A DNA stretch of 64,000 nucleotides, from contig CALUPH010000003.1 in the NCBI GenBank assembly GCA_944322615.1, forward strand, positions 124,001 to 188,000, given 5' to 3'. Origin of the DNA: Candidatus Gastranaerophilales bacterium. GTDB taxonomy: Bacteria; Cyanobacteriota; Vampirovibrionia; Gastranaerophilales; Gastranaerophilaceae. Each line of letters opens with the position of its first letter. Within the stretch, counting starts at the first letter, position 1. Under the pieces are notes generated by a model, which had not been told where the DNA came from, ran no database searches, and saw nothing but the letters and a program-made list of their open reading frames with translations. Shown piece after piece: positions 8,539-60,651 of this stretch. Position numbers and translations under genes: made by a program.

Positions 8539-8552
8539 TTTAACTCCTTTTT

Positions 8553-8585: not shown

Positions 8586-8621
8586 AAAATAAAGAATGAG
8601 GATTATTATATGTCAAAAGCA

Positions 8622-9020: not shown

Positions 9021-9034
9021 ATTTTACCTCCCTT

Positions 9035-10030: not shown

Positions 10031-10054
10031 TACCATTTCCTTTCTTTTCTTACA

Positions 10055-10657
10055 CTACATTGTAGGGAATAATATATCTTCCCTACTTTCCTTTTGAACA
10101 GCAGGAGAATTTGCTTCATATATCTTGTCGTTTTGCATCTTTTTCCCAATGTTATAGAACATTTTCACTACTTTAGGGTGACAATTTAGTCCTGTTTCTT
10201 CAAGTAAAGATTGAACTTCATCATCTGCAAATTGAGTATAAGCAATATTAGCAGTTCTCATCGTTTTGGCATAATTAGCACCGCCAAGTTCCATATCCAT
10301 TGATAATGCGCGCTTAAAATTATTTATTTTTTGTCTTTGTTGTTCCGCCATAGTTTTAGAGAAATTAGATCCCGTTAACTGTGTCAGCTTCACGGCCATC
10401 GACATTAGTTCATTTGCGCTTTTTTGTGACAAATTATACTTTCCTGCAAGTTCATTAAACTCGTTTAATAATTCTTCATCGTAATAACAATTTTCAGGAA
10501 GTTTAACATCCGAATAATCATATTTTTCAGGTTTTCCAAAATAACCGTTTTCATCTTGAGGATTAGATTCAATATTATTATTTTCTTTTTGTTGATTTTC
10601 ATAAGCATTAACGCCTAATCCGACATTTTGTTTTTCTTGTAATTCTTCATTTAACAT
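10055..10657 (-). CDS. Capsid scaffolding protein
   Basis: A 200-residue, acidic and Asn/Gln-rich protein located between portal and major capsid, the usual scaffold position. The first 55 residues look disordered. Residues about 60-140 are helical (EELLNEFNELAGKYNLSQKSANELM, typical of the mid region of podovirus scaffolds). A short C-terminal segment ending DILFPTM would bind the capsid shell. AAGGAG precedes the ATG. Confidence 0.75.
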   Translation of the reverse strand: MLNEELQEKQNVGLGVNAYENQQKENNNIESNPQDENGYFGKPEKYDYSDVKLPENCYYDEELLNEFNELAGKYNLSQKSANELMSMAVKLTQLTGSNFSKTMAEQQRQKINNFKRALSMDMELGGANYAKTMRTANIAYTQFADDEVQSLLEETGLNCHPKVVKMFYNIGKKMQNDKIYEANSPAVQKESREDILFPTM

Positions 10658-10669
10658 TTTTATCTCCTT

Positions 10670-12325: not shown

Positions 12326-12326
12326 T

Positions 12327-12527
12327 TTACTCCCCTAAAAGTTTCTTCTTAGAAGCAAGTACTTCATCTTCAAGTCCATTGTTTGTTGTTTTTATGTTTT
12401 CTGATACAATGCCCCTTACTCCGGAACGATTTGCAGCGTTTGCTTTTTGTGTAGAAGCATCTGCTTGAACAGCAGTTTTTATAGTTTCAGCTTCTTCAAC
12501 AACTGGCACTTTTGTTGTAGAACACAT
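12327..12527 (-). CDS. Small virion-associated protein upstream of portal
   Basis: A 66-residue protein starting MCSTTK. The ATG at 12527 is preceded by AAAGGAG; a longer frame from 12542 would start on top of that box. The C-terminal half (NRSGVRGIVSENI...GLEDEVL...KKKLLG) resembles the short proteins encoded just before portals in podoviruses (T7 gp7.3-like), which share a G-x-x-x-T...GL...KK-LLG tail pattern. It may be a head-tail joining or tail-tip protein. The similarity is from memory and should be treated as moderate. Confidence 0.6.
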   Translation of the reverse strand: MCSTTKVPVVEEAETIKTAVQADASTQKANAANRSGVRGIVSENIKTTNNGLEDEVLASKKKLLGE

Positions 12528-12624
12528 AGTTTCTCCTTTCATTTTTTGATTAATAATATATTTATAGATAATTGTTTTTAATAAAAATCTTCAAATGTCC
12601 AAACGACAAATCAAACAGTGATAA

Positions 12625-13107
12625 TTAATTACAGTCAGAGTTTATGTAATTTTCTAATTTTTTTAATCGGTTTAACCAACCGGCATAAAAAACTTTCTGA
12701 GTCGGATTTCTTTCAACTATTGATTTATATTTTTCTCGTCTCAGTTGTAAAAATAAATCAACATTACCGGCTGATTTTAAATATAAAGACTTACCTACAG
12801 AAACCCCATGGTTAACACAAGAATCAAATAATATTAAAGCCAAAGAAAAATTTTGAATTTTATTTGCACCTGACGCTACCCAATAATCTTCGTAATAAAT
12901 TTTGATAGCTTCTGTTTTTTCAATTTGTTTGACAGAACGCGGAGCAAGTTTATTTTTCTTTCGATAATAATCATAAGTTTTTTGAGTAATACCAAAATTA
13001 GTAGCTCCGCCCCTGTCATTTTTATGATTACTGTAACCGCCTTCTACATTAAACAAATATTCCATTGCTTTTTTAAAGTTAAAATCATCGTTATCACAAG
13101 TAACCAT
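12625..13107 (-). CDS. Endolysin, GH108-type muramidase
   Basis: A 160-residue protein whose N-terminal part carries the glycoside hydrolase 108 signature: the catalytic Glu in VEGGYSNHKNDRGGATNFGIT at about residues 23-43. A C-terminal helical domain with FDSCVNHG and LRREKYKSIVERNP...AGWLNRL is standard for GH108/PG-binding endolysins. It cuts the glycan strands of peptidoglycan. No signal peptide or transmembrane helix is present, so a holin is needed. The ATG at 13107 is chosen for its AGAAAGG box with a 6-base gap. The gene lies between terL and portal. Confidence 0.88.
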   Translation of the reverse strand: MVTCDNDDFNFKKAMEYLFNVEGGYSNHKNDRGGATNFGITQKTYDYYRKKNKLAPRSVKQIEKTEAIKIYYEDYWVASGANKIQNFSLALILFDSCVNHGVSVGKSLYLKSAGNVDLFLQLRREKYKSIVERNPTQKVFYAGWLNRLKKLENYINSDCN

Positions 13108-13123
13108 AAGCATCCTTTCTGTT

Positions 13124-14434
13124 TTATCCATATGGATCAAAATTAGAATCTAAGATAACGGTTTCATCTTTTTCATCAATTAAATATGAATAATAATTTA
13201 TTGCATAAGTACCCATCATCAAACTATCAGCAAAATCAGGACTTTCACCTTGTTCTGATTTCATTTCTTTTTTAGACTGAATAAATATTTGACCATTCGG
13301 CTTATAAGATTTCTTAATATACTCCAATTGAGATATTGTAAAATCTGAAGATATTTTCAACCACTCATTATCAATAAAATCTTTTAAAGTAAGATAACCA
13401 TCCGCTCTTCTGTTTAAAGCATTTGGTCTGTTACTTGAAGCGGCACCATTGAATTTTATAGTATTAGATATTACATTCTTAATACTTACATAAATAGAAT
13501 AGCCTAAACCATCTGCATCTAAAATTAAAAGTTCAGGTTTCCAAAGTGAATATAAATTGATTATTCTTCCTTTAGTTATATCAGTATCAGGTTCATTCCA
13601 ATACTCTTGTTTTTCCAAAGACCACTGAGTGGAACTTTTAGACTCAATAAGACTTGCAACACACAAATCACCGCCATTACCGGCTAAATCGACAGACATA
13701 CATTTTATTTTTCTGTAACTTTCATCTTTTAATACAATATTCTTAGCTTTATCAAGCTTTATTGCAGAAAAAAGAAAGTCATTTGTAGTATCTAACGGAT
13801 TTCCTTCCCAAATATATTCATAATCAAGAATATTTCTTTCTTTACAGCGTTTAGCTTCATCTATAAGTTTTTTAGGACAATGTTTATTATCGTAATAATT
13901 AATTTTTATATGAAGACAATCATCTCTGGAAACGAACTCGGAATATACAGGATCCTTACGGACAAGTCTGTTCATAGTAAAAATAACAATAGAATTAACT
14001 TTTCTTATTGTAGGGATTATTACATCAAGAGTTGATTTAGTTATAGCTTGTGCTTCATCAATCCAAAGGATGTCAACACCTTCAAGACCTTTTATATTGA
14101 CTCTGCCTTGTTCTCTAAATCCCTTAAAAATAATACTTGATGAACTTTTATTATGAACAATTTTATTAGACTTTACTGTAAAATTTAAATTATAATCACT
14201 TATTAAATCGTTAAATATTTTATAAACACTATCAGAAATTGTAGCCTGTGTTTCTCTCCCGCAACAAACCCTGACGTTCCGTTGTTCAGCTAACCAGAGG
14301 ATAATTCGTGCTATACTTTGGGACTTGCCACCACCCCTTCCTCCTTCGATTAAAAAATAATTATAGTTATTAATATTAGTTATTATAGGTATAAGTTTTT
14401 CAGGGATATTTAAAATTTCGGGTAATTCAATCAT
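13124..14434 (-). CDS. terL: Terminase large subunit
   Basis: A 436-residue packaging motor. The ATPase has Walker A GGRGGGKS (about residues 32-39) and Walker B ILWIDEAQ (about 126-133). The nuclease domain shows the expected acidic residues in SVDLAGNGGD, LILDADGLG and the last ADSLMMG segment. The order and spacing fit PBSX/Terminase_3-like enzymes, which cut and translocate concatemers. I start at 14434, where AGGA lies upstream and ATGATTGA overlaps the terS stop. A longer frame to 14464 is available but lacks a ribosome site. Confidence 0.92.
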   Translation of the reverse strand: MIELPEILNIPEKLIPIITNINNYNYFLIEGGRGGGKSQSIARIILWLAEQRNVRVCCGRETQATISDSVYKIFNDLISDYNLNFTVKSNKIVHNKSSSSIIFKGFREQGRVNIKGLEGVDILWIDEAQAITKSTLDVIIPTIRKVNSIVIFTMNRLVRKDPVYSEFVSRDDCLHIKINYYDNKHCPKKLIDEAKRCKERNILDYEYIWEGNPLDTTNDFLFSAIKLDKAKNIVLKDESYRKIKCMSVDLAGNGGDLCVASLIESKSSTQWSLEKQEYWNEPDTDITKGRIINLYSLWKPELLILDADGLGYSIYVSIKNVISNTIKFNGAASSNRPNALNRRADGYLTLKDFIDNEWLKISSDFTISQLEYIKKSYKPNGQIFIQSKKEMKSEQGESPDFADSLMMGTYAINYYSYLIDEKDETVILDSNFDPYG

Positions 14435-14723
14435 TTTCTTCTTCCTGAGCGCAATCTTCTCCAACTTTTATTTCTAATGCTTTTCCGTCAATCATAACTT
14501 TGCCCATTATATTGACATTTGTAGAAGTTTTTTCCTTTTCGGAATACAAACCGCATAATTTACCTTTTAACTCTTCAGCCTTTAAAAATATAGAAATATC
14601 AGGACTGACTTCATCATCTTTTCCTTTTCTATTTAGAGCCATTTGTTGTACGACCTCTAAATTTTCAAAGGATTCATTTTTTGAATATTCAAATTTTTTA
14701 GTCTGTTTCTTTTTAGCAGCCAT
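14427..14723 (-). CDS. Probable terminase small subunit
   Basis: A 98-residue protein that overlaps the terL start by 8 bases, the standard place for terS. It has a Lys-rich N-terminus, a central helix (DISIFLKAEELKGKLCGLY) and a strand-rich acidic tail (VNIMGKVMIDGKALEIKVGEDCAQEEEND) resembling the oligomerisation end of small terminases. I see no clear helix-turn-helix, so the assignment rests mainly on position and size. GGTGGA precedes the ATG. Confidence 0.6.
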   Translation of the reverse strand: MAAKKKQTKKFEYSKNESFENLEVVQQMALNRKGKDDEVSPDISIFLKAEELKGKLCGLYSEKEKTSTNVNIMGKVMIDGKALEIKVGEDCAQEEEND

Positions 14724-23019: not shown

Positions 23020-24351
23020 ATGTCTATGAATATAGGATCAAAACTCGTATCAAAATTAGGTTCTCCAAATTCCAGAATACCATTAGCAGCAAAAGATATA
23101 TTTAATTCTACAGGTTACACATATTTTTCCTATGATGCAGGCGGTAAGATTGAAGGCAAAGACAGACTTGTAGATGAAGTAGGAACCGGAGCCTTATGGC
23201 TATTCGGTATACCAGCCTATAAAAAATTAATTGATAAGACTATATTTAAAAAAGCAGGCATTTCTCCTGAAGTAGACGTAAGAATCTTAAAAGATAATGA
23301 TTATTTAAAAAAAGCAATAGAAAATGCTCCAACCAAAACAATAATGGAGGATTTAAAAAAAGCCGGAGCTAATATTCCAAAAACAAAAGCCCTTACCATA
23401 CTCAAATTTGGTATGTCACTTGGCTTAACTATGCTTTCATATTTTGCATTAACTAAATTCAAGCAAAATATGACAAAAAAGAACATTGAAAAAGAATTTC
23501 TAGCTAAACAAATTGAAAATCAACCAGAAACATTGTCACCTTACAATAATGAAAACCCGATTTTTTCTGATTTTAATCAGGGAAAGAAAAAAAATAACAC
23601 ACCATCATTTGGGTCATCTTCACTATCAAAAGTAGCTGAATCAATTGTACTAAACCCAATAAATAATATGTTCGTACTTGATACTTGTATATCAGGAGAG
23701 AGACTTTCCAGTGCAAGAACAAAAGGTGAATTTGCAGAATACGGAATAAAAGAAGGTTCTTTTTTATTTTTTGTATATATAGCAGACAAATTAATAAAGA
23801 AAGGAATTGAAACCGCATCTGAAAAAATATTAAAAAGTCCAATAAAACTGGATGCAAAATTTTTATCCACAAACTTAGCAGAGAATATACTTAAGCAAAA
23901 ATCACTTCAAGATGAAATAAAGGAATTTAGTAAAAAATTCGGTAAAAATTGTGATACGAATGCTTTATATGAATATATATTTAAAAATCAAAACAGCACA
24001 GTTGTAGAAGCAGCAAAAAGTTCAGGAATTATTTCTACAATAAAAACAGGGCAAATTGACACAAGAAAATATATCGACGTAAAGAAAATGCAAGAACTTG
24101 CAGAAAATCTGCAAAAATTCATATCATCTTCAACCAATTCAAATAATACAAAATCCTATCTAAACAAAATTAAAGCATTAAAAGTAGGTTCAACAATGCT
24201 TAACATAGGAGTATGTTGTTTATTCTTAGGTTATGTTGTTCCCAAAATGATGTATGACTACAGAAAAAAACATCAAAACGGAAAAAATGATTTCCACGTA
24301 AAAACAGAATATGAAAAAGAACTCGCAACAAAACATGCAAAATCACTTTAA
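23020..24351 (+). CDS. Unknown membrane protein with PSFG motif
   Basis: A 443-residue protein with no recognised domain. Likely membrane segments are at about 131-147, at about 245-260 (weak) and at about 407-425. A Lys-rich linker at about 180-200 carries NTPSFGSS, one of the five SF(x)G strings in host proteins of this window. The rest is helical and Lys-rich. It is probably a lineage-specific inner-membrane protein. It is preceded by a possible leader peptide and followed by another short SFG protein. Confidence 0.75.
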   Translation: MSMNIGSKLVSKLGSPNSRIPLAAKDIFNSTGYTYFSYDAGGKIEGKDRLVDEVGTGALWLFGIPAYKKLIDKTIFKKAGISPEVDVRILKDNDYLKKAIENAPTKTIMEDLKKAGANIPKTKALTILKFGMSLGLTMLSYFALTKFKQNMTKKNIEKEFLAKQIENQPETLSPYNNENPIFSDFNQGKKKNNTPSFGSSSLSKVAESIVLNPINNMFVLDTCISGERLSSARTKGEFAEYGIKEGSFLFFVYIADKLIKKGIETASEKILKSPIKLDAKFLSTNLAENILKQKSLQDEIKEFSKKFGKNCDTNALYEYIFKNQNSTVVEAAKSSGIISTIKTGQIDTRKYIDVKKMQELAENLQKFISSSTNSNNTKSYLNKIKALKVGSTMLNIGVCCLFLGYVVPKMMYDYRKKHQNGKNDFHVKTEYEKELATKHAKSL

Positions 24352-33666: not shown

Positions 33667-35583
33667 TTAAGATTGAGTTTCTCTAAGTTTTTCAATATCA
33701 AGCTGCTTAACTTCTAAATCTTTAATAGTAGACTGAAGCAATATAATTTCAGCTTTTAGAGCAGAAATAACAGATGGCAGTTTAAGATAAGCTTGTTTAT
33801 CATTTATACGTCTAATATGAGCAGTTAAAGATTGAGACTCAATCTGAGCATCTTCCAAAGTTTTTCCTGCAGTAACTTTCAAATAATTTTCAATATTTTT
33901 TTCAGCAGAACTAATTTGTTTTTTTAATTCAGATTCTTGCTTTCTCAAAGAATCAATTTCATCTTGAAGTTCCTTACGTTTCAATGCTTCATTTGCAGAT
34001 ATTACAATATTTGATTGTAATAGTTCAGAAATTTCAGAATCAATTGAATTTTTAGCAGCAGTATTAATAATTGCTTTCAATCCATTACCGGCAGAATGTG
34101 CTTCAATATATTTAGCAGCTTCTACAAGAGCAAGATATCTTTGATAAAGCGTTTGTTCTTCTTCTGAAAATAAAGAAGGATCGAAGTCATTTTCAGAATA
34201 CTGCAAAATTTCAGCCTCTAAATTAAAAATTCCTTGCTGGCAAGACAATAAAGAACTATTTAGTTGTTCTAAGTTAGCCTTTTCTGCAGCAATTTTAAGA
34301 TGTGCAGAAATTATAGCATCAACCTTATTTTTAGAAACTTGCAACATTTCTAAAGTAGGGAAATTCTCATCAAGCTCCATTATTTCAAGTTCTAAATCAT
34401 CTTTACGAGATTCTTGTAGTTCAATATCTTGATTCAAAGTAGCAATAGAAGCTTTATAAGCTTGAATTTTTTCTTCTTTCTCAGCATCTGTCATTTGAAC
34501 TTTAGGATTTTTTTTAGCTTTCTTCGGTGGATTTCGCAAATCATTCAATGCAGAACTAATATTACTTCTTCTATCTCTAAGAGTTTGTATTGCATTTATC
34601 AACTGATCACGTTGATTAACTTTTTGTATTCTTTTAATTAAAGCTTGATATTCCTCATCAGAAGAAACAGAATCCAATTTTGTTTGTAGTGTTTCAATTT
34701 CAGCCTGTTTTGACAGAATTTCATCTTTGCAATTTTGAATACTTGTCGAAACAGAAGAGTTAGCTTCTAATATTCTAAAATCAATACTTCCTAGCCGAGA
34801 AACCGTTTCTTCTCTTTGACCAAAAAGTCTTTGGACATATTTTAGCAAATTTGTAGCCGACATTCTGCTCAATATACTGGATGCAGAAGAAGACATTAAA
34901 TTCGAATAAGCATAATGAAATTTATCAGGAGGCATGTTTTCTTTGATAGAAGGAAACATAGCATAAAATTCAGGAAAAGACATGCCCTTTTTCAGATCAT
35001 GATTACAACAATAGCAAGCTTCAACCAAATTAATATCTGCATTATTATTTTCCTCCTCTAAATTTTGTGGAGAAACATGGTCAACAGTACGGGTTAAAGG
35101 GCGCATATTTCTTTTAAGAAGTTCTAAAGCTTCTTCAGGTTCCATATTATATACCTGTTGAAAAATTGCATCACCTTTCAAGAAAGACTTATCTTCAGCA
35201 ATTTTTTGCAATTTTCTGAAAAATTCAATTTCTTCACGATTTTCAATTTTTTTAGCAAATGTTAATTCTTCAGAACGAACAGCTGATTCAAGTTTTTCCA
35301 ATACACTTTTAATATCACCTTGTAAACGATGAGATTTTGAACTAAGCATGCTTTTTGCAAGAGATTCTATTTGAGCCTCACTATAAACCTTGCATCCACA
35401 ATATGCACAGTGATTAGTAGGATTAATAATAGAATCTATATCATATTTTTTCGCACGAAAAGTTACAATATCACCAAAAGAATTTTCATTTTTACGATTC
35501 ATAGGTGAATATGTTTCAGCTTTATCAAAAACAAATCTTTGTTTAAAAGGATTATATAAATTACTTACACTTTGAATTTTCAC
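33667..35583 (-). CDS. HNH-nuclease-like protein with long coiled coil and SFG motif
   Basis: A protein of about 638 residues. CAYC near residue 60 and TVDHVSPQN...INLVEACYCCN near 167-195 form an HNH/zinc-finger nuclease pattern, with DH as the general base and two Cys pairs for zinc. From about 230 to the end it is coiled coil with high Glu, Gln and Lys content. SFGDIVTFRAKK lies at about 35-46, one of the SF(x)G strings. I take the GTG at 35583, which has GAGAG upstream; a TTG two codons earlier is the alternative. Function unknown; a structural or SMC-like nuclease role is possible. Confidence 0.65.
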   Translation of the reverse strand: MKIQSVSNLYNPFKQRFVFDKAETYSPMNRKNENSFGDIVTFRAKKYDIDSIINPTNHCAYCGCKVYSEAQIESLAKSMLSSKSHRLQGDIKSVLEKLESAVRSEELTFAKKIENREEIEFFRKLQKIAEDKSFLKGDAIFQQVYNMEPEEALELLKRNMRPLTRTVDHVSPQNLEEENNNADINLVEACYCCNHDLKKGMSFPEFYAMFPSIKENMPPDKFHYAYSNLMSSSASSILSRMSATNLLKYVQRLFGQREETVSRLGSIDFRILEANSSVSTSIQNCKDEILSKQAEIETLQTKLDSVSSDEEYQALIKRIQKVNQRDQLINAIQTLRDRRSNISSALNDLRNPPKKAKKNPKVQMTDAEKEEKIQAYKASIATLNQDIELQESRKDDLELEIMELDENFPTLEMLQVSKNKVDAIISAHLKIAAEKANLEQLNSSLLSCQQGIFNLEAEILQYSENDFDPSLFSEEEQTLYQRYLALVEAAKYIEAHSAGNGLKAIINTAAKNSIDSEISELLQSNIVISANEALKRKELQDEIDSLRKQESELKKQISSAEKNIENYLKVTAGKTLEDAQIESQSLTAHIRRINDKQAYLKLPSVISALKAEIILLQSTIKDLEVKQLDIEKLRETQS

Positions 35584-35809
35584 AGTCAATCTCTCAAACG
35601 TATCACTTAGAGAAAATATGAATAAAAGATTTTTTGTTACTATATTAAAAAAGATTTACAAGACCCTCAAAAATACTTGTAAAATTTTGTAAATAGGAGA
35701 ATAAAAACTAACAATAACATAATTTAGAATTTTTATATACAGATGTCTTTTGTGTTTAGAAATAATATATTAATTCTCATTCAGAATTAGGAAAGAGAGG
35801 GTAGTTTAT

Positions 35810-38734
35810 ATGAGAATTTTGTTCAATCAAACTTATGGCATTGGAAACATTAATGCTTTACAGAATAAAAAAGCAAACAAAATATATACCAATGCAACAA
35901 CAAGTGACGTAGTATCTTTTTCGGGGAATATAGAGCGTCATAAAATCAAAGTAGAGCCTGATACAGCAGAATTTGTTGCAAACAGCTTATCAACATCAAC
36001 ATCAGGACACAGAGCACCATATGGTTCAAAAACTTTTAATCCCGAGATAGTAGAACTAATGACCCTAGGCGTAGCAGAATATGCAAAAGAGGCTGCAGCA
36101 AGAGGCAACAAGAAACCGGTAGTATTAATTGGTGGAGACACAAGACAAGCCACAAAAGAATCACTTCCATTAATAAAAGATACACTGGTAAATCAAGGTG
36201 TAGATGTAATATATATAAAAGAACCGGTACCTACACCATTACATGCTCTAATGACAAAAGAAAATGATATTGATGTATCAATTTTATTAACAGCAAGCCA
36301 TAATCCTTGGAGTGATGGAGGATTTAATTTAGTAACAAAAGAAGGCGCAATTGCCCCACCAGCTGTAACAAAGAAAGTAGCACAAAATATTGTGGACTAC
36401 GCAAAAAAAGGAGTATATACAACCGACAAAAGAAAAAAAGGAGATGTTACAGAAACATATCCATATAATATGTACAGAGATAAACTAAATTCATATCATT
36501 TGATAGACTGGGATGCTATAAAAGATGCCGGAATATCAATATACTATGATGATTTAAAGGGTACAGGCGGAAATGTATTCCCAAAATTATTAAAAGAATA
36601 TGGAATTCCTAATAACTTTGTAATTTCAGGAAAGAAAGAAGGTCCAAATCCAACAGACGCAAATTTAACAGAAGTTAAAGATTGTATAAGAGATGACAAA
36701 GCAGAATTAAAAGTAGGGTTAGCAAATGATGGAGATGCTGATAGATTTGGAATCATAGATGAAAAAGGAAACTTTATAACTCCTAATGATGTTATTTTGC
36801 TTGTAGCACACCATTTAGCAAATAACAAAGGATTAAAAGGAGATATTATAAGAAGCCAAGCAACTTCGTCACAACTAGATTTGTTTGCAAGAAATAATGG
36901 TCTAAATGTAATACAAACACCTGTAGGATTTAAATATATAGGTGAAGATATTCTCGGATTAAGAGAACAAGGTAAGGATATATTAGTCGCAGGAGAAGAA
37001 TCCGGCGGACTAACAATAAACGGACATATACCGGAGAAAGACGGAATTATAGCTTTACTAACTATCTTAGATTTAATGGCAACAGAAAATAAACCAATAT
37101 CTGAAATTTTAGAAGAAACAAAAAAAGGTTTAAATTCTGAATTTAGAGCAGATAGCTTTAGCCAAAAGTTAGAAAAAGAGTCAGATAAAGAAATCATAAT
37201 GAACAGAATGAAAGAAATTTATACAAAAGCTCTTGAAGGAGAAACAACTTTTGGCGACTTTGAAATAGATGTTGAAAAAACAAAAGCAAATGCAGAAGAA
37301 ATGGAAAGATATCGCCAAGGCGGAGATGGAGTAAAATTATACTTTACAGACGGTTCATCAATATTAGTAAGAAAGAGCGGAACAGAACCCAAAGTAAAAG
37401 CATATATTGAAACATATAATGATTCTGCAGAGATAGCTGATGCAAATGTTGTAAAACTAAGAAATGAACTTGAAAAAATATTTGAAATCAGTCCTAAAAA
37501 TACAAGTTTTAAAGGGACAAATAATGAAGTACAAGTAAAGATACCGGATATTGATTTATCACAATATAAAGTAAATGCCGCAGAAGCAACGAAAGATATA
37601 CAATCAAGAATCGGAGTAAAAGGTCAATTTCTAAACTGGATTGGAGAATTACCGCAAACACAGCTAAAGAATATTGATAATATATACAACCTTGCACAAG
37701 AAGCAAAAAAAGGTGGCTACACAGACTTAGCAATACTGGGAATAGGTGGTTCAAGACACACGACTGAAGCAATGATGAAAATGTTGGGAAAAGATGCAAA
37801 CGTGCATTTTTACTCAGCAGTTGACGGAGAAAGTTTCAGAAGATTTACAGAAGGACTTGATTTAGATAAAACAAAATTCTTAGTTGTATCAAAATCCGGC
37901 GGAACCTTAGAAACAACAACAGCATATGAAGCAGCAAAAAAATTAATGCAAGAACATACACAAAAAAATGATGTTTCAGATAAATTTATTGCAATGACAG
38001 ATGCTTCAAGTGAAAAAAGTAATCTAAGAAGAGCTGTAGACAGAGGCGAAATTGATCTTTCAGGACTTGTACATGATGATGTTGGCGGAAGATTTTCAAT
38101 ATTTGATGATGCAACAATCTTTACAATGGCATATGCCGGAGTTCCAAAAGAAGATATCATAATAATGTTAAAAGCATCAATAAAAGCACAGAAAGAATTT
38201 TTAAATCCAAACATAAACGAAAATGAAGCACTTCAATTGGCAGCATTCAATTTGGATTCAAAAACAAAGGGAAAAAGCAAACACTATGTTGAATACTTTT
38301 CTGATGCATTTTCAGGAACTACACTTTGGGACAAACAACTAAACAATGAATCTCTTAAAGCCCAAATTTCAACAGAAACAAATATCGGTCCAGGCTATCT
38401 TCACTACAATGCAGAAGCAGATTTAGATGAAGCAAATACAGATTCATATTATACATTTGTATACCCAAAATCTGATGAAAAAACAACAAATGCTGTTATA
38501 AAAGGGGTAACAACAGCATATTCAAAACAACATCCTGTGACAGAAATAGAAATTAAAGATTTTAGTCCGGAATCAATTGCTAGATTTATAGAACTAAAAC
38601 ACTTTGAAACTCTATACACAGGGAATATGTTAAGACGTTACAACGGAAATGTCACATCAGAGAATGAAGCATTACCTGAAGTATTACAACCTAATGTAGA
38701 AAAATACAAGAAAGAGGTAAAGGCAAATCTATAA
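35810..38734 (+). CDS. Fusion: phosphoglucomutase/phosphomannomutase and glucose-6-phosphate isomerase
   Basis: A 974-residue bifunctional enzyme. After an N-terminal tail with VVSFSGN (about 35-40), the phosphohexomutase domain (about 60-555) has the phospho-Ser loop TASHNP, metal loop DGDADRFG, sugar loop GEESGG and phosphate loop RKSGTEPK. A linker with NTSFKGT (SFKG at 566-569) joins a phosphoglucose isomerase domain (about 600-974) with LGIGGS, SKSGGTLET and GGRFSIF. Together they could interconvert glucose 1-, glucose 6- and fructose 6-phosphate. AGAGAGGG precedes the ATG. Each half looks complete in its key motifs. Confidence 0.85.
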   Translation: MRILFNQTYGIGNINALQNKKANKIYTNATTSDVVSFSGNIERHKIKVEPDTAEFVANSLSTSTSGHRAPYGSKTFNPEIVELMTLGVAEYAKEAAARGNKKPVVLIGGDTRQATKESLPLIKDTLVNQGVDVIYIKEPVPTPLHALMTKENDIDVSILLTASHNPWSDGGFNLVTKEGAIAPPAVTKKVAQNIVDYAKKGVYTTDKRKKGDVTETYPYNMYRDKLNSYHLIDWDAIKDAGISIYYDDLKGTGGNVFPKLLKEYGIPNNFVISGKKEGPNPTDANLTEVKDCIRDDKAELKVGLANDGDADRFGIIDEKGNFITPNDVILLVAHHLANNKGLKGDIIRSQATSSQLDLFARNNGLNVIQTPVGFKYIGEDILGLREQGKDILVAGEESGGLTINGHIPEKDGIIALLTILDLMATENKPISEILEETKKGLNSEFRADSFSQKLEKESDKEIIMNRMKEIYTKALEGETTFGDFEIDVEKTKANAEEMERYRQGGDGVKLYFTDGSSILVRKSGTEPKVKAYIETYNDSAEIADANVVKLRNELEKIFEISPKNTSFKGTNNEVQVKIPDIDLSQYKVNAAEATKDIQSRIGVKGQFLNWIGELPQTQLKNIDNIYNLAQEAKKGGYTDLAILGIGGSRHTTEAMMKMLGKDANVHFYSAVDGESFRRFTEGLDLDKTKFLVVSKSGGTLETTTAYEAAKKLMQEHTQKNDVSDKFIAMTDASSEKSNLRRAVDRGEIDLSGLVHDDVGGRFSIFDDATIFTMAYAGVPKEDIIIMLKASIKAQKEFLNPNINENEALQLAAFNLDSKTKGKSKHYVEYFSDAFSGTTLWDKQLNNESLKAQISTETNIGPGYLHYNAEADLDEANTDSYYTFVYPKSDEKTTNAVIKGVTTAYSKQHPVTEIEIKDFSPESIARFIELKHFETLYTGNMLRRYNGNVTSENEALPEVLQPNVEKYKKEVKANL

Positions 38735-38836: not shown

Positions 38837-40045
38837 CTATTCAGTAATTTTATCTACAACACCAGCACCAACTGTACGGCCACCTTCTCTGATAGCAAAT
38901 CTCATACCTTGTTCGATAGCTACAGGAGAGATAAGTTCAACGTCCATAACAACGTTATCACCAGGCATTACCATTTCGCCATCAAATTTGATAGAACCGG
39001 TAACGTCAGTTGTTCTGATGTAGAATTGAGGTCTGTAACCTGGGAAGAATGGAGTATGACGACCACCTTCATCTTTTGTTAATACATAAACGTTAGCAGT
39101 AAATTTAGTGTGAGGTTTAATAGAACCAGGAGCTGCTAATACTTGACCTCTTTGAACTTCAGATTTATCAACACCTCTTAATAAAGCACCGATATTATCA
39201 CCAGCGATACCTTCATCAAGAAGTTTTCTGAACATTTCAACACCAGTTACAGTAGTCTTTTTAGTTTCGCCGAAACCAACGATTTCAACTTCTTGACCAA
39301 CTTTAACTTTACCACGTTCAACTCTACCAGTTGCAACAGTACCACGACCTGTAATAGAGAAAACGTCTTCAACAGGCATTAAGAATGGTTGGTCAACATC
39401 ACGTTCAGGAGTTGGGATCCAAGTATCAACTGCATCCATAAGTTCCCAAATTTTGTCAACCCATTTATCTTGACCACGACCGATTGTTGGGTTAGCTTGA
39501 ACAGCTTCTAAAGCTTTTAAAGCAGAACCTCTGATGAAAGGAGTATTGTCGCCGTCGAATTCGTAGCTTGATAATAATTCTCTAGCTTCCATTTCAACTA
39601 ATTCTAACAATTCTTCATCTTCAACCATATCACATTTGTTCAAGAAAACTACTAATTTTGGAACACCAACTTGTCTAGCAAGTAAGATGTGTTCTCTTGT
39701 TTGAGGCATTGCACCATCAGTAGCTGCAATAACAAGAATACCGCCGTCCATTTGAGCAGCACCTGTAATCATATTTTTTACATAGTCTGCGTGACCTGGG
39801 CAGTCAACGTGAGCATAGTGTCTTGCATCTGTTTCATATTCTACGTGAGCTGTAGAGATTGTTATACCTCTTGCTTTTTCTTCTGGAGCTGCATCGATTT
39901 CATCAAACTTTTTAGCTTGAGCTTTACCAACAGCTGCCATACAAGATGTGATTGCTGCAGTTAATGTTGTTTTACCGTGGTCAACGTGACCTACAGTACC
40001 AATATTAACGTGCGGTTTGGTTCTTTCAAACTTTTCGCGTGCCAT
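38837..40045 (-). CDS. tuf: Elongation factor Tu
   Basis: A 402-residue EF-Tu with GHVDHGKTT (P-loop), [22 protein letters not shown] and the three-domain length. It delivers aminoacyl-tRNA to the ribosome. AAGGAG lies just before the ATG. It is the last gene of a tRNA-Thr/tRNA-Tyr/tRNA-Thr/tuf transcript, an order also seen in the E. coli thrU-tyrU-glyT-thrT-tufB operon. Confidence 0.98.
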
Positions 40046-47136: not shown

Positions 47137-49107
47137 ATGAACATTTCATCATTAATACAAGGTTTTTCATCATACTTAGAAAATTTAAACGAAACATCAG
47201 AGAAAAACTACAATACAAGTTCATCTAATGTTAGTATTTTTATGTATTCATCAGAATTTAAATCTTATATTGCTAATGAATTGGATATTGCAGATTCATC
47301 AATTTTCTCAAAAAGTATTAATGATATTTTATCAATGGATGTAGTTAATGGTAAATTAGTAGAAAATAAAGACGAAAACACTGATTCATTTGAAACATCA
47401 GAAGATAATGAAACAGATGAAACTAATTCAATTCAACCGGAAGAAAATATTCCAAACCAAAATGAAACACCGGCTGCTGAGAATACAAATTCAGGAGAAA
47501 TAGCTCAAGAAGGCGGAGAAGAAGGAACTGAAGCATTAACAGATCTTCTCAATAATTTATTCCAAGATGAAAGTGTAATTTCCGCATTAGATACTGATAA
47601 CAGCGGAGAACTCGACAAAGAAGAAATATCATCATTTATCGAAACAATAAATGGTGCAGATGGTGATGCAAACAATCTTACTCTTGATGATATATTAGCA
47701 GGCATAGAACAAATCAAAGAAAAAGCAAATGAAACAGAAACGGCAGAAGAAGAAACAGAACCTGAAACAGAAGAAATAAACCAAGCACAAAATGTTGCAG
47801 CTTCAACAGGAACACCTGCAAGTTCATCAGGAAGTTTTTCAGGCGGTTCTACAGGAGGAAGTTCAATACCAAGTTCTTCTTCAAATAATTCAGTACAAGA
47901 AAAAACTCTTGATAACATGACAAGAGAAGAATTAAATTCAGAACTTTCAACAGCAGAATCTGATTTAACAGAAAAGCAAGGAGCTTTATCAGCATTATAT
48001 GACGGTTCTGATTCAAATCTTCAAGCTTTAAATGAAAATATGGAAAATTTATACGACACATATTTAGAAGAACTTGAAACAGTTGATGAAGAAATGGCTG
48101 AACAAGTTGATACATTAAAGCAAGATATAGATTCAAAACAAGATGAAATAGATGCCAAAGATCAAGAAATAGCAGATCAAGAAGGTGTTGTATCAAATGC
48201 AGAAGCAGCATATAACAATACTGTTTCAAATACACAACAACTTAAATCTTCATTATCATCATTGCAATCAACAGATACATCAAACATGGATGATTCACAA
48301 ATTGCAGAACTAAATTCAAAAATTGCAGAACTTCAATCAAAAGTTACAGAAGCCGAACAAGCAGAAGATGATGCAAAACAAGCTTGGGACGATGCAGAGG
48401 ATGCATTAGATACACTTAATGAACAAAGAGATAGTTTACAAACAGAACTTGATAATTTAAATAATGACATGACAGAACTTGAAGCAGAAATAGTAGAAAA
48501 ATACCCTGAAATTCAAGAATCATTAAACGCATATAATGAAGCAAAACAAGAACACGATAATTACAAATCAGAAGCAATTACAAGTGCAAAATCTGAAATT
48601 GAATCAGCTCAAAACTATGTAAATGAAATCAACACAGCAATTAATAACCTTGATAATAAAGAAATAGAAAAAGAATACAGCATGAATCAATATGATGCTG
48701 AAGAAGGTGAAAGACTTGTTGATGTTGCAAAACAAATGTTAGGAAGATATGGTTCTTCAACAGGATATTGTGCAACAGGTGTAAGCAGAACAATGTCTAT
48801 GGCATATGGAATAAGCATGGGCGGCAATGGTTGTGACTGGGATACAAATATGGACAAACTAGTTGCAGAAGGGATGTTTACAGAAGTAACAAGTGACTAC
48901 CCAACATCCGGAGACTTATCAAGTTTACCTGCAGGTGCAGTTGTATGTTGGGAAGCAACAGGAGGAACAAACGGCGGCGGAGCCCAATATGGACACGTTA
49001 CAATAGCAGATGGTAACGGTGGCGAAATTTCAGACCACTATGCTTCAAATATCTATACAAGTGTTGGTGGCAGAAGCGATACTTACAGAATTTTCATACC
49101 TGTATAA
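47137..49107 (+). CDS. EF-hand/coiled-coil protein with C-terminal CHAP/NlpC-like peptidase domain (copy 1)
   Basis: A 656-residue protein without signal peptide. Residues 1 to about 76 form a domain shared with the next gene (NVSIFMYSSEFKSYI; SINDILSMDVVNGKLV). An acidic linker follows, then an EF-hand loop at 152-163 (D152, D154, S156, E163), a Ser/Gly linker (about 225-250), a coiled coil (about 260-510) and a papain-like domain from about 523. The likely Cys is C545 (GYCATG), the His H620 (YGHVTIADG), and the third residue is near 633. It probably cuts peptidoglycan peptides, either as a cell-wall enzyme exported without Sec or as a delivered effector. Confidence 0.75.
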   Translation: MNISSLIQGFSSYLENLNETSEKNYNTSSSNVSIFMYSSEFKSYIANELDIADSSIFSKSINDILSMDVVNGKLVENKDENTDSFETSEDNETDETNSIQPEENIPNQNETPAAENTNSGEIAQEGGEEGTEALTDLLNNLFQDESVISALDTDNSGELDKEEISSFIETINGADGDANNLTLDDILAGIEQIKEKANETETAEEETEPETEEINQAQNVAASTGTPASSSGSFSGGSTGGSSIPSSSSNNSVQEKTLDNMTREELNSELSTAESDLTEKQGALSALYDGSDSNLQALNENMENLYDTYLEELETVDEEMAEQVDTLKQDIDSKQDEIDAKDQEIADQEGVVSNAEAAYNNTVSNTQQLKSSLSSLQSTDTSNMDDSQIAELNSKIAELQSKVTEAEQAEDDAKQAWDDAEDALDTLNEQRDSLQTELDNLNNDMTELEAEIVEKYPEIQESLNAYNEAKQEHDNYKSEAITSAKSEIESAQNYVNEINTAINNLDNKEIEKEYSMNQYDAEEGERLVDVAKQMLGRYGSSTGYCATGVSRTMSMAYGISMGGNGCDWDTNMDKLVAEGMFTEVTSDYPTSGDLSSLPAGAVVCWEATGGTNGGGAQYGHVTIADGNGGEISDHYASNIYTSVGGRSDTYRIFIPV

Positions 49108-49224
49108 ACTCAGAAACAGAATCTTATTAAATTATAAAGATTTGTAACATTTTATTTATTATTTATTAATTTTGAAAGAAAAAAATTTTTCTTATGTATA
49201 AGAGAACAAAAACACGAGAGTACT

Positions 49225-51309
49225 ATGAGATTAGAATTTCTAAAAGCAGGATTTCAAAGTTTTTTAGAAGAGTTAAGTCAAATTTCCAACAAAGAATATG
49301 CCTTAACAGATTCTGACGTTAGTATTTTCATGTATGCAAATGAATTCAAAAATTATATTTCAGATGAAATTGATGTAGATCCGAAAGTATTATCAATGAG
49401 CATCAATGATATTTTGAATATGGAAATAGTAAACGGGAAATTAGTTGACCCAAATGAAGAAGAAGACACAAAAGCAGAAGATATAGAAGAAAAAACAGAA
49501 ACAGAAACTGAAGCAGAAACAACAACAGAAACAGAAGAAATTGCGCCTGAAGATAGTGCTTTAGCAATGCAAGAAGATACACAAGGTGCAACAGAAGAAG
49601 GTACAGCAACAACTGAAACAACTACTTCAGCTAAAGGCGATAATGTTCAACAATATGGAGAAAACCCAACAATCAATATGGGTGAAATTCCTGTTAGCGA
49701 TATGTTAAATGAATTGTTTGAGTTAGATACAATAAAAGAAACCATAGATACAGATGTAGATGGTGAACTAAATGAAGAAGAAATTCAAACATTTTTAAAT
49801 GCAATAAAAGGTTATGATGGAAATGATCAAGACATTTCATTAGAAGATATTTTCAATTCTTTACAAGCGATAGCAGATGGAAAATTCTCATTAGATCCGG
49901 AAGCAGAAGCAAAAATTGAAGAAGAAGAAAAACCTGAAGAAATAAAAGAAGAAGCAGTTGAAAGTGCAAATGAAAGCACAGGTACAACTCCAAGCAGAAA
50001 TGTTGGCGGAACATCCGGAACAGGAAGTGTAGGCGGATCTTCTGGAGCAGTTCAAAGCTCAACTCCACAAGAAAAAACTCTTGATAACATGACGAAAGAA
50101 GAATTAAAATCAGAACTTTCATCTGCGCAATCTGATTTATCAGAAAAACAAAATAAATTATCTTCAATACTTGACGGTTCAGATGAAAAACTTCAATCAC
50201 TTAATGAAAATAAAGAAAAATTATATGACACATATCAAGAAGAACTTGAAAAAGTAGATAAAGATATGGCTGAACAAGTTGATACTTTAAAACAAGATAT
50301 CGACTCAAAACAAGATGAAATAGACTCAAAAGATCAAGAAATAGCTGATCAAGAAGGCGTAGTATCAGAGTCTGAAAATGCATATAATAATGCTGTTTCT
50401 ACAAGAGAAAATTTAGAAGCTTCTCTATCCGCATTACAAGGTGTAGACACAGCGGATATGGATAGTGACAAAAAATCAGAATTAAGTTCTAAAATTGCAG
50501 AACTTCAATCAAAGATTTCAGATGCAAAAGAAGCAGAAAACAACGCAAAAGAAGCTTGGGACAATGCAGAAGAAAAATTAGATACATTAAATGAAGAAAG
50601 AGAAACTCTTCAAGGCGAGTTAGATGAACTTGAAAAACAAATGACAGATCTTGAAGCAGAAATTGTTGAAAAATATCCACAAATGAAAGAATATATGGAT
50701 GCCTATAATGAAGCTGATGAAGAATACAAAGAATACAAAGAATCAGCAACCGCATCTGCAAAAGCTGAAATACAAGAAGCACAAGATTATGTAAATGAAG
50801 TAAATACAGCAATCAATAATTATGACAACAGAGAAACAGCAAAAGAATATTGCTTTGGCGACTTTGGTGAAGAAGTTTTAGAATATGCAAAACAATTTAT
50901 CGGTGCAAACGAAGCAGACGGCAGTGCAGATAAATTTGTAGCAGCTTGGGGAACAACATCATCAGCAACTCCTTGGTGTGCAGCATTCGTTGATTATGTA
51001 TTATCTAATTGTGAAAGTGCGGATGACGTTCCTGATTGGTATAAAAATATAGGAAATAAATGGTATTGTCCGAACGTTGATGCAGCAGCTAAAAGTGCAG
51101 ATGCTATAATTAGCGCAGATGAAGTACAACAAGGTGATATTGTTTTATTTGACTGGGATGGAGATGGAACAAAAGACCACATTGGTATTGTTGATTCAAC
51201 AGAAAATGGACAAGTTATAACTATAGAAGGTAATACATCAGACCAAGTAGCACAAAGAACATATAACTTAAATGATTCAAGACTTACTTTCTGTAAAATG
51301 ACAGCATAA
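49225..51309 (+). CDS. EF-hand/coiled-coil protein with C-terminal CHAP peptidase domain (copy 2)
   Basis: A 694-residue paralogue of the preceding protein. The N-terminal domain (DVSIFMYANEFKNYI; SINDILNMEIVNGKLV), the EF-hand (DTDVDGELNEEE), the acidic and Ser/Gly linkers, and the coiled coil (several near-identical stretches such as MAEQVDTLKQDIDSKQDEID) are shared. The C-terminal domain from about 544 differs: a canonical CHAP with C585 (TPWCAAFVDYV), H652 (KDHIGIVDS) and E668/N670 (TIEGNT). No signal peptide is present. The conserved body with swapped catalytic ends suggests a modular toxin or hydrolase scaffold. Confidence 0.78.
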   Translation: MRLEFLKAGFQSFLEELSQISNKEYALTDSDVSIFMYANEFKNYISDEIDVDPKVLSMSINDILNMEIVNGKLVDPNEEEDTKAEDIEEKTETETEAETTTETEEIAPEDSALAMQEDTQGATEEGTATTETTTSAKGDNVQQYGENPTINMGEIPVSDMLNELFELDTIKETIDTDVDGELNEEEIQTFLNAIKGYDGNDQDISLEDIFNSLQAIADGKFSLDPEAEAKIEEEEKPEEIKEEAVESANESTGTTPSRNVGGTSGTGSVGGSSGAVQSSTPQEKTLDNMTKEELKSELSSAQSDLSEKQNKLSSILDGSDEKLQSLNENKEKLYDTYQEELEKVDKDMAEQVDTLKQDIDSKQDEIDSKDQEIADQEGVVSESENAYNNAVSTRENLEASLSALQGVDTADMDSDKKSELSSKIAELQSKISDAKEAENNAKEAWDNAEEKLDTLNEERETLQGELDELEKQMTDLEAEIVEKYPQMKEYMDAYNEADEEYKEYKESATASAKAEIQEAQDYVNEVNTAINNYDNRETAKEYCFGDFGEEVLEYAKQFIGANEADGSADKFVAAWGTTSSATPWCAAFVDYVLSNCESADDVPDWYKNIGNKWYCPNVDAAAKSADAIISADEVQQGDIVLFDWDGDGTKDHIGIVDSTENGQVITIEGNTSDQVAQRTYNLNDSRLTFCKMTA

Positions 51310-58410: not shown

Positions 58411-60396
58411 TTAGTGCATGTTTTTTACATAATCAATAACTTTATCTTGCGGATAACCTTTTTCAAATAATGATATTAAGCTGTCAGCTCTCATATTATC
58501 AATATCACCATCAGCTGTTTTACAAAATTCAATAGCGCTTTTTATATCCTGAATTTGAGTTTTACCGACACTTAATTCCCATAATATTTCAGATAATTTA
58601 CTATTAATTTTACCTGAGGAATCTTTACATTGCTGAAGCATAAATAGAATATCCTCATAACGTTCACCATTCTGACACATTATAGAACAGATACCGGCAC
58701 CTTCATCATTCACATTAATCTCATCTTCATTCATAGCCGCATATACAATATCATTAGCATTCTGAACAAATTGTTCTTCATTCATTGGTTCAGCAGCAAC
58801 TACAAAGAAATTATGTGCAAGAACATATAATACATCCATTGCATTTTCATCAATATTACCTTCTTCATCTTTTATCAAAGGTAAAAGTTTTAATAAATTA
58901 GATTTATCTTCAAAGAATTGAGAAAAGTATACAAAGAATTCTTTTATATTTTCATTTCCGCGAACTTCAGGAAGCAAAGCAGAAACTTCTTTACCGCCAA
59001 TAACAGCAGAACTCAACGAACAAATATTCTTAATATCTTCTGAAGAATAAGAACCATCTTGTTCTTTTTCAACAACATTCAATAAAGGTAGAATATCTAT
59101 ACCTAAAGCACCGGAAGATTTAATTTGTGTAATTGTATTCAATTTATGAGCATTGATTCCATTTTCTTCTAAACAGAAATCTGTCATACTTAACAATTGG
59201 TCATATGGAATTCCGTTATTTCTTAATACAGACATTATACGAAGAGACTTGGAATCTATTTCTCCATTTTTATCACGATATTTTTTTACGTATTCTAATA
59301 ATAAATTATCTTCTATCTTTGAAATAATTTCCGAATACTCTTTCCTAAGATCATGAACAGATTCACCCTCAACAGGAGAAATATATGTAACTTTATTATC
59401 TTTCATAATCATTACATCATTTCCAAACTTAATGGTAATTACTCCCAAATGATTAATAGGATTATCTCTTTCCGCTTTTTCATTAGATCTGGTAGAAACC
59501 AATGCTTTTTTCAAAGATACAACTGACTTTACAGCGGAATCTGAAATAGTCCGAAGCGAAGTATCAGTACTTTTTACTGCTAATGAATCTAATATTTTTA
59601 TTATCGAATCAGTAGAAATACCGGCTTTTTTCATTTTAAGTATTTTCGTTTCAACTGAAGCTTTATCTTCAAAATCAGAATTTAAAAACCTAACAAGTTT
59701 TAAAGCTTCAAAATCATCAAAATCAGCCTTTTTAAAGTCAGCAATTTTACTGCACATAGATAAATTAAGAACATCTTTTCCCGAATCATTTTCAGCTACA
59801 ATTGATTCAAGTATTTGAGGAATAATAACCGGTTTAACAGATGCTTTAGCGAGAATTGAAACAGCTTGAGCAATATCATCCGGAATTGCCCCATCATCAT
59901 CACAACATTTCTTTAACAGATAAGACAAAGAATATCCGTCTGCAATAGAAGAATCAAATGCTGTCACAATAGCTTGTGCATTTTCGTCAATGGTACCATC
60001 AGCCTTTTTATAATTTTCTAATATTTTTAAATTATCAACATCTTCATTCGGATTAAATGCAGTATTTTTTGTTGATAAACCTTTAAATGACGGCATAGGA
60101 TAAACCGGCAACTTCAAAGTTTGCCCTTGTTCTGCAAGTGAATTTTGTATTTCTGTAATTCTTTTATCAATCCAAGCTTGCTCGTTTTCAAGAGTTTCAT
60201 TTTTTGCAGCAATACTTAACTTTTGAAGCAAGTCATATTCTTTTTCCATCATAACAGGCGAATTAGCCATATCAGACTTTGCCGCTTTCTTTTTAAAGGA
60301 ATTATATTCCTTTTTAAGAACTTCAAACTCAGATTTCTGAGTTTTTTTGCTTACAATTAACCCTTCTGATGCTTTACCAATTGATATATCAGTCAT
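58411..60396 (-). CDS. Repeat-rich, solenoid-like protein with SFKG motif
   Basis: A 661-residue acidic protein. After a helical N-terminus comes YPMPSFKGLST (SFKG at 103-106). From about 125 to the end there are at least eight imperfect repeats of 35-50 residues. Each opens with a short acidic loop such as KKADGTIDEN, CCDDDGAIPDD, YRDKNGEIDSK, IKDEEGNIDEN, CKDSSGKINSK or CKTADGDIDNM, followed by two helices. The loop resembles an EF-hand half. The start at 60396 has AAAAGGTG before it; a longer frame to 60423 does not. No known family. Confidence 0.7.
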   Translation of the reverse strand: MTDISIGKASEGLIVSKKTQKSEFEVLKKEYNSFKKKAAKSDMANSPVMMEKEYDLLQKLSIAAKNETLENEQAWIDKRITEIQNSLAEQGQTLKLPVYPMPSFKGLSTKNTAFNPNEDVDNLKILENYKKADGTIDENAQAIVTAFDSSIADGYSLSYLLKKCCDDDGAIPDDIAQAVSILAKASVKPVIIPQILESIVAENDSGKDVLNLSMCSKIADFKKADFDDFEALKLVRFLNSDFEDKASVETKILKMKKAGISTDSIIKILDSLAVKSTDTSLRTISDSAVKSVVSLKKALVSTRSNEKAERDNPINHLGVITIKFGNDVMIMKDNKVTYISPVEGESVHDLRKEYSEIISKIEDNLLLEYVKKYRDKNGEIDSKSLRIMSVLRNNGIPYDQLLSMTDFCLEENGINAHKLNTITQIKSSGALGIDILPLLNVVEKEQDGSYSSEDIKNICSLSSAVIGGKEVSALLPEVRGNENIKEFFVYFSQFFEDKSNLLKLLPLIKDEEGNIDENAMDVLYVLAHNFFVVAAEPMNEEQFVQNANDIVYAAMNEDEINVNDEGAGICSIMCQNGERYEDILFMLQQCKDSSGKINSKLSEILWELSVGKTQIQDIKSAIEFCKTADGDIDNMRADSLISLFEKGYPQDKVIDYVKNMH

Positions 60397-60651
60397 ACTA
60401 CACCTTTTCTCGTGATTAATCACGTAATTTTACAAAATTCCGAATATTATTTATTACGGTAAAAAAATTTTTAACTTTAATTTATTGCTTAAAAAAAGAA
60501 GTTACAGTTACATTTATTAACATTATTTAAATTCAAGCATTAATGATTTGTAAACTAATGTAACGTTTCATCTTTTTTTTGTAAATTCAGAATTTTCAGT
60601 TAACTTTTTTACCACGGATGACAGATTAAATCGGAATAAAAGGTAAGTAAA

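What the first reader, a model, noticed from the sequence alone, without database searches (positions are those of the whole stretch)
35810..38734. Phosphoglucomutase fused to phosphoglucose isomerase
One frame carries all key loops of a phosphohexomutase (TASHNP, DGDADRFG, GEESGG, RKSGTEPK) and of an isomerase (GIGGS, SKSGGT, GGRFSIF). Fusions of isomerase with transaldolase or with mannose isomerase are known; this pairing is not one I know. It would link glycogen or nucleotide sugars to glycolysis in one polypeptide, with SF(x)G strings at the tail and the linker.
Basis: partly seen in the sequence, partly recalled or inferred. Interest (0 to 1): 0.6.

Follow-up and report, generated by a model that had tools for sequence, protein, structure and literature searches.

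The report
Tagged sugar-phosphate mutase–isomerase fusion enzyme
A gut cyanobacterial relative (Gastranaerophilales) makes two neighbouring sugar-phosphate enzymes as one protein, and that protein carries a short address tag shared with a spare set of starch/glycogen enzymes, which may mark them for export or for a special place in the cell.

Summary
The fusion is real. One 974-aa frame (35810-38734) holds a four-domain phosphohexomutase and a phosphoglucose isomerase (PGI). Mutase loops are intact; PGI Arg, Glu and Lys are kept, the His is uncertain. Full-length homologues occur in 7 other Gastranaerophilales assemblies (69-98% identical), so it is not an assembly error. Separate PGI and mutase genes coexist: this is an extra copy. 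Two relatives keep the PGI unfused at the same locus beside EF-Tu.

The further finding is the SFxG string. Both partner genes bear a disordered N-terminal leader ending in [VI]-S-F-x-G. All 8 fusions keep one copy at the N-terminus and a second in the linker. About 30 proteins of this genome carry such leaders, including second copies of GlgA-, GlgB-, MalQ- and GlgC-like enzymes.

The genome also encodes a flagellar-type type III export apparatus with no filament, hook-cap or MotA/MotB homologue detected. The leader resembles the two-part export signal of early flagellar subunits.

Best reading: a bifunctional F6P-G6P-G1P enzyme of a tagged, possibly exported, alpha-glucan pathway. Fusion and tag are shown; catalysis and export are inferred.

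The parts
35810..38734 (+). Fusion gene, 974 aa: leader - phosphohexomutase - linker - phosphoglucose isomerase
35795..35801 (+). Shine-Dalgarno-like GAGAGGG before the ATG
   Evidence: read from sequence; upstream stretch listed
35810..35926 (+). N-terminal leader, residues 1-39, ending in VSFSG (35-39); disordered in the AlphaFold2 model (1-38 below pLDDT 50)
35996..37441 (+). Phosphohexomutase domains I-IV (residues 63-544)
   Evidence: Pfam PF02878, PF02879, PF02880, PF00408; best PDB fold matches are phosphoglucomutases
36290..36304 (+). TASHN catalytic serine loop (161-165)
36728..36745 (+). DGDADR metal-binding loop (307-312)
36992..37003 (+). GEES of the sugar-binding loop GEESGG (395-398)
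37370..37387 (+). RKSGTE phosphate-binding loop (521-526)
37499..37516 (+). Linker copy of the tag, NTSFKG (564-569), inside a disordered stretch 562-572; SF[KR]G kept in 8 of 8 fusions
37529..38722 (+). Phosphoglucose isomerase half (about residues 574-971)
   Evidence: Pfam PF00342 at 638-858; unfused homologues 82-83% identical over this half
38090..38092 (+). Arg761 in GGRFSIF, aligned with the Arg of E. coli Pgi GGRYS
38348..38350 (+). Glu847, aligned with E. coli Pgi Glu355
38402..38404 (+). His865 in GPGYLHYNAE; invariant in the 11 PGIs aligned, two columns from E. coli Pgi His386
38708..38710 (+). Lys967, aligned with E. coli Pgi Lys514
33667..35589 (-). Neighbouring 640-aa protein of unknown function that also bears the leader motif (GDIVTFRAKK); flanks the unfused PGI too in G002 and G031
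38837..40045 (-). EF-Tu gene, the conserved downstream neighbour of both fused and unfused PGI

Best explanation
This is a bifunctional enzyme that interconverts fructose 6-phosphate, glucose 6-phosphate and glucose 1-phosphate. It arose, probably once, within one Gastranaerophilales genus, when a leader-bearing mutase gene was joined in frame to a leader-bearing PGI gene beside EF-Tu; the linker is what remains of the PGI leader. It belongs to a set of tagged second copies of alpha-glucan enzymes (GlgC-like, GlgA-like, GlgB-like and MalQ-like). The leader, a small hydrophobic start plus a downstream [VI]-S-F-x-G, is a targeting signal. My preferred mechanism is recognition by the retained filament-less flagellar-type type III export apparatus, so that the sugar-phosphate and glucan steps work away from the cytosolic housekeeping set. 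Shown: the fusion, the intact mutase loops, the tag and its conservation, the co-existing untagged paralogues, and the export apparatus genes. Inferred: catalysis, the direction of the joining, and export.
For: Fusion; 8 assemblies, 69-98% identity. Single group: 80/97 support in the mutase tree; one side of a branch in 73% of bootstraps in the PGI tree. Same flanks around the unfused PGI of G002 and G031, whose leaders end DTVSF..., then VEITIP or VQVKIP, matching the fusion linker NTSFKG..VQVKIP. Linker SF[KR]G kept in 8/8 while its flanks vary; leader and linker are disordered. Tag in the genome: SFKG 15 seen against 2.9 expected, NISF 16 against 2.6; 43 N-terminal motif hits against 6 for the reversed motif, and I/V at residue 3 more often than in other proteins (p = 2e-5); Shine-Dalgarno-like sites before 18/29 tagged starts against 4% of internal Met codons. 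Motif kept in divergent GlgA-, GlgB- and NTP-transferase orthologues whose leaders otherwise differ. Untagged paralogues of GlgA, GlgB, MalQ and helicase exist, with about 2-7 times more cysteine. Tagged GlgA-like gene in all 5 genomes with fusion-type PGI, but in only 10 of 58 overall. Export genes FlhA, FlhB, FliP, FliQ, FliE, FliF, FliH, FliI and rod proteins found; FliC, FliD, FlgD, FlgK, FlgL, MotA and MotB not found. Early flagellar signals have hydrophobic residues at 2-5 and a Phe motif at 36-40 (PMC8983047); fusion leaders have Phe at 37-43. E. coli FliE has TISFAGQL, and this genome's own FliE and FlgB have GVSFKN and DISFSQ. Precedent: a Chlamydia phosphoglucomutase acquired a type III signal (PMC9251005).
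Against: No activity or localisation data. Some tagged proteins have the motif Phe at residues 6-11, too close to the start for the 19-24 residue spacing of flagellar signals. The hydrophobic residues that follow the Phe in FlgD (FLTLL) are not kept. An internal tag copy in the linker is not needed by a purely N-terminal export signal. The export apparatus marker FlhA is present in all 57 order members searched, so its presence does not discriminate within the order. The rod-protein resemblance was noticed after looking. Some tagged proteins look membrane-embedded. The PGI catalytic His is not cleanly aligned. Neither half reaches an NCBIfam equivalog cut-off.
Confidence: 0.42

Rival explanations
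1. The SFxG motif is a docking peptide for a cytosolic scaffold, granule or membrane site. Fusing two tagged enzymes strengthens a glucan metabolon inside the cell; nothing is exported.
For: The internal linker copy is kept in 8/8 fusions. The glucan steps include a GlgC-like enzyme that would need a nucleoside triphosphate. The tagged GlgA has hydrophobic C-terminal segments. Very short leaders also carry the motif.
Against: No scaffold or shell protein was identified; one simple BMC-shell pattern gave no hit. Low cysteine relative to paralogues hints at life outside the cytosol. The tag is also on helicase, nuclease-like and other non-glucan proteins.
Confidence: 0.33
2. A plain bifunctional housekeeping fusion. 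The leader and linker are tolerated spacer without a targeting role.
For: Both halves are ordinary families with their key loops; fusions of consecutive enzymes are common (own knowledge).
Against: The genome keeps separate PGI and mutase genes. The motif is enriched at N-termini and conserved across divergent leaders and in the linker.
Confidence: 0.15
3. One half has lost its standard activity and acts on another sugar phosphate (for example phosphoglucosamine, mannose or a 6-deoxy sugar) or as a regulator.
For: Best profile for the mutase half is archaeal GlmM, below cut-off (214 against 439 bits); PGI equivalogs are far below cut-off. The PGI His position is ambiguous.
Against: All four mutase loops and the PGI Arg, Glu and Lys are kept, and much of the PGI half is invariant in 11 homologues.
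Confidence: 0.08
4. Assembly or sequencing artefact joining two genes.
For: None found.
Against: Eight assemblies, down to 69% identity, with different contigs.
Confidence: 0.01

Closest known systems
Bifunctional transaldolase / phosphoglucose isomerase (NCBIfam NF007080)
   Same: PGI as the C-terminal half of a fusion; the profile matches residues 606-918
   Different: The partner here is a phosphohexomutase, not a transaldolase; score 86.9 against a cut-off of 712
Bifunctional phosphoglucose/phosphomannose isomerase (TIGR02128)
   Same: A sugar-phosphate isomerase fold
   Different: One active site with two substrates (own knowledge), not two enzymes; score 22 against 213.9
Archaeal phosphoglucomutase/phosphomannomutase (PDB 9du5, 1wqa)
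   Same: Same four-domain fold; best structural matches
   Different: Stand-alone, without leader or PGI half
Chlamydia trachomatis CT295, a phosphoglucomutase that is a type III secretion substrate (PMC9251005)
   Same: A housekeeping phosphohexomutase with an added N-terminal signal, within glycogen metabolism outside the bacterium
   Different: Its signal was shown to be recognised by a type III machinery; here export is inferred. No PGI fusion is described there; different signal and organism
Two-part export signal of early flagellar subunits (FlgD; PMC8983047)
   Same: Small hydrophobic residues at 2-5, then a Phe motif about 30 residues on
   Different: Motif is SFxG rather than FLTLL; some tagged proteins have much shorter spacing; no export test

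Membership tests
Alpha-D-phosphohexomutase superfamily | Four PGM_PMM domains | tested here: met
   PF02878, PF02879, PF02880, PF00408 above gathering scores; fold match
Alpha-D-phosphohexomutase superfamily | Catalytic Ser, metal, sugar and phosphate loops | tested here: met
   TASHN 161, DGDADR 307, GEES 395, RKSGTE 521
Alpha-D-phosphohexomutase superfamily | Membership of one named equivalog (GlmM, Pgm, ManB) | tested here: not met
   Best is TIGR03990 with 214 bits against a cut-off of 439
Phosphoglucose isomerase | PGI domain (PF00342) | tested here: met
   54 bits against 22
Phosphoglucose isomerase | Arg, Glu and Lys of the active site | tested here: met
   R761, E847, K967 aligned with E. 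coli Pgi; E. coli residue numbers from my own knowledge
Phosphoglucose isomerase | Catalytic His | tested here: inconclusive
   E. coli H386 aligns with N867; invariant H865 lies two columns away
Phosphoglucose isomerase | Catalytic activity | not testable with these tools
   needs an assay
Transaldolase-PGI fusion | Transaldolase domain before PGI | tested here: not met
   No transaldolase match; mutase domains instead
Type III (flagellar-type) export substrate | Disordered N-terminal leader with small hydrophobic residues at 2-5 | tested here: met
   MRIL start; residues 1-38 low pLDDT
Type III (flagellar-type) export substrate | Downstream Phe recognition motif at suitable spacing | tested here: inconclusive
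   Phe at 37-43 in 8 fusions, but the FLTLL-type sequence is not kept and some other tagged proteins have Phe at 6-11
Type III (flagellar-type) export substrate | Export apparatus in the same genome | tested here: met
   FlhA, FlhB, FliP, FliQ, FliH, FliI, FliF, FliE and rod proteins
Type III (flagellar-type) export substrate | Demonstrated export | not testable with these tools
   needs a secretion assay

The most novel reading that the evidence does not exclude
Gastranaerophilales have turned a filament-less flagellar basal body into a general protein exporter. Its cargo is marked by [VI]-S-F-x-G leaders that copy the recognition motif of rod subunits, and includes a second fructose-6-phosphate-to-alpha-glucan pathway, part of it fused into this mutase-isomerase.
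Probability: 0.35. Interest if true: 0.88.

Novelty: new variant of a known kind. Interest (0 to 1): 0.63.

Why it matters
The pairing of phosphohexomutase with phosphoglucose isomerase is an enzyme-fusion architecture for which I found no published description. More important, the fusion exposes a tag shared by about 30 proteins in a widespread, little-studied gut lineage. If the tag is an export signal, it gives a function to the partial flagellar gene sets reported in Gastranaerophilales (PMC4040986) and makes their effect on hosts or gut protists testable. It would parallel the secreted glycogen enzymes of Chlamydia in an unrelated phylum.

Tried and rejected
Artefact: rejected, 8 independent homologues. 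Viral or plasmid origin: the viral-contig scan gave no relative; phage and plasmid searches gave only mutase-half matches in the rows listed and none covering 80% of the query. DNA-pattern census of the tag over 146 genomes of the phylum was uninformative, with too few hits per genome. Simple patterns for FliP, FliQ and flagellin gave nothing; phmmer with E. coli K-12 proteins worked better. The AlphaFold2 model has modest confidence (mean pLDDT 70, 11 sequences), so no claim is made about domain packing or the PGI active-site geometry. PGI tree: canonical PGI and L159 are long branches, so deep placement is unsure.

Full report
WHAT IS THERE. Window 35810-38734 (+) is one open frame of 974 aa. 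Pfam places phosphohexomutase domains I-IV at 63-544 and a phosphoglucose isomerase (PGI) domain at 638-858. The mutase loops TASHN, DGDADR, GEES and RKSGTE are all present; in the PGI half Arg761, Glu847 and Lys967 align with E. coli Pgi, while the catalytic His is uncertain (H865, two columns off). A Foldseek search with the AlphaFold2 model gives phosphoglucomutases as best matches. Neither half reaches a curated NCBIfam equivalog cut-off, so I do not assign a narrower substrate.

NOT AN ARTEFACT, AND CLADE-RESTRICTED. Full-length homologues occur in 4 of 41 genomes of the genus, the window's own included, and in 7 assemblies of the named collection, titled Candidatus Gastranaerophilales, Candidatus Galligastranaerophilus or goat gut bacterium; with the window this makes 8. 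They form a single group in the mutase tree (80/97) and, with weaker support, in the PGI tree (73% of bootstraps), where two unfused PGIs (L229, L230) sit beside them.

HOW IT AROSE. In G002 and G031 an unfused PGI stands at the same place, between the same tagged neighbour and EF-Tu. Its own leader carries DTVSF[ST].., then VEITIP or VQVKIP. The fusion has NTSFKG..VQVKIP at its linker. The simplest reading is that a leader-bearing mutase gene was joined upstream and the PGI leader was trimmed to a linker. A later split in G002/G031 is not excluded. Mutases with the same kind of leader exist unfused elsewhere in the genus (L019, L021, L144-L150) and in another family (L151).

THE TAG. All 8 fusions keep D-x-V-[ST]-F-[ST]-G-N-I at the end of an otherwise variable leader and SF[KR]G in a variable linker. 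Both stretches are disordered in the model (1-38, 562-572). I fetched 1.91 Mb of the 1.96 Mb genome and made a simple gene list. NISF, ISFK and SFKG are among the most N-terminally enriched 4-mers once hydrophobic ones are set aside. The motif [IVPT][ST]F[KSGRT][GAS] occurs in residues 4-95 of 43 proteins, against 6 for the reversed motif, and these proteins have I/V at residue 3 more often than others (p = 2e-5). A rate of about 1% per 92-residue window at internal positions means that some of the 43 are chance, so I speak of about 30. Leader starts look like real translation starts by Shine-Dalgarno-like sites (18/29, against 38% of all genes and 4% of internal Met).

WHO CARRIES IT. Besides the fusion: a GlgA-like protein (C15:4702), a GlgB-like protein (C19:297), two MalQ-like proteins (C16:18803; C2:90039), a GlgC-like nucleotidyltransferase (C10:2431), a DEAD/DSHCT helicase, an AAA ATPase, an HNH protein, a metallophosphatase and many proteins without Pfam match. 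Untagged paralogues of GlgA, GlgB, MalQ and the helicase exist in the same genome. In orthologues from other genomes the leaders differ but the motif stays: GlgB [VIL]SFGR or PSFGR, GlgA ISF[KGA]G or VSF[RK]G, nucleotidyltransferase V[NS]FG or NISF. The tagged GlgA-like gene is found in 10 of 58 relatives and in all 5 of those with fusion-type PGI; related genomes are not independent, so I give no p-value. Tagged copies are poorer in cysteine than untagged paralogues (GlgA 0.52 against 1.66%, GlgB 0.75 against 2.41%, helicase 0.29 against 1.96%; fusion 0.10%); over a hand-picked set p = 0.003. The untagged stand-alone PGI (411 aa) has no cysteine at all, so the sign is not exclusive.

A POSSIBLE ADDRESS. 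The genome holds an operon with FlgF/G-like, FlgB-like and FlgC-like rod proteins, FliE, FliF, FliH, FlhA and FliI (C6:100332-110729), plus FlhB, FliP, FliQ and a FliN-like protein elsewhere. With E. coli K-12 queries no FliC, FliD, FliS, FlgD, FlgK, FlgL, FlgH, FlgI, FliM, MotA or MotB was found. Absence by phmmer does not exclude diverged forms. All 57 order members searched have an FHIPEP protein and the class outgroup G057 has none. Most genomes of other families have two full-length types, one scoring near 870 bits and one near 710; in this genus the full-length copies listed are all of the lower-scoring type. PMC4040986 reported that most Gastranaerophilales then known kept only part of a flagellar gene set. 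PMC8983047 showed that early flagellar subunits are exported by a hydrophobic signal at residues 2-5 and a Phe motif (FlgD 36-40) at least 19 residues apart. The fusion leaders have Ile at 3 and Phe at 37-43. E. coli FliE reads TISFAGQL, and this genome's own FliE and FlgB read GVSFKN and DISFSQ with Phe at 43 and 44. The last comparison was made after seeing the sequences and is a lead only.

WEIGHING. Fusion and tag are well supported. That the tag is a targeting element is likely. Whether the target is the export apparatus or an internal scaffold is open: cysteine content, leader anatomy, the export genes and the Chlamydia precedent (PMC9251005) favour export; the conserved internal linker copy, very short leaders on some proteins and membrane-like tagged proteins favour a docking role. 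I put export at about 0.4 and scaffold at about 0.33.

LIMITS. Gene calling was simple; 2.3% of the genome was not read; the tag boundary is a regular expression; catalytic residue numbers of E. coli Pgi are from my own knowledge; the literature search covers only the open papers held.

Noticed in passing
G000 C6:100332-110729; C3:22603; C4:110170-114112: Flagellar-type type III export apparatus without detected filament, hook-cap or MotA/MotB genes; a lower-scoring FHIPEP type is conserved across the order beside the higher-scoring one of other families.
   Followed up: partly
G000 C2:156401-157867 and C8:66605-67402; similar hits in nearly all relatives: Separate proteins matching only the C-terminal (cytosolic) part of FlhA, about 490 aa and 265 aa. 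Could be docking partners or adaptors of the export system.
   Followed up: no
G000 C15:4702-7572: Tagged GlgA-like protein has hydrophobic C-terminal segments and may be membrane-anchored.
   Followed up: no
window 555-14464: Run of minus-strand genes that reads like a prophage structural cluster (terminase-like at 13124, others downstream of it); judged by eye only.
   Followed up: no
window 23020-24351 and 58411-60423: Two further proteins with tag-like strings at unusual positions (TPSFGSSS inside the first, MPSFKGLS near residue 110 of the second); no Pfam match above cut-off.
   Followed up: partly
window 47137-51309: Two paralogous long, acidic proteins of 656 and 694 aa in tandem.
   Followed up: no
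phage record MW495066.1, 219639-221150: Microcystis phage MaAM05 carries a phosphoglucomutase 39% identical to the mutase half.
   Followed up: no
G000 C2:44018-45253 and orthologues: A 411-aa stand-alone PGI, 67% identical to the fused PGI, without leader and without cysteine, present in nearly all genomes of the genus beside the canonical PGI seen in this one.
   Followed up: partly
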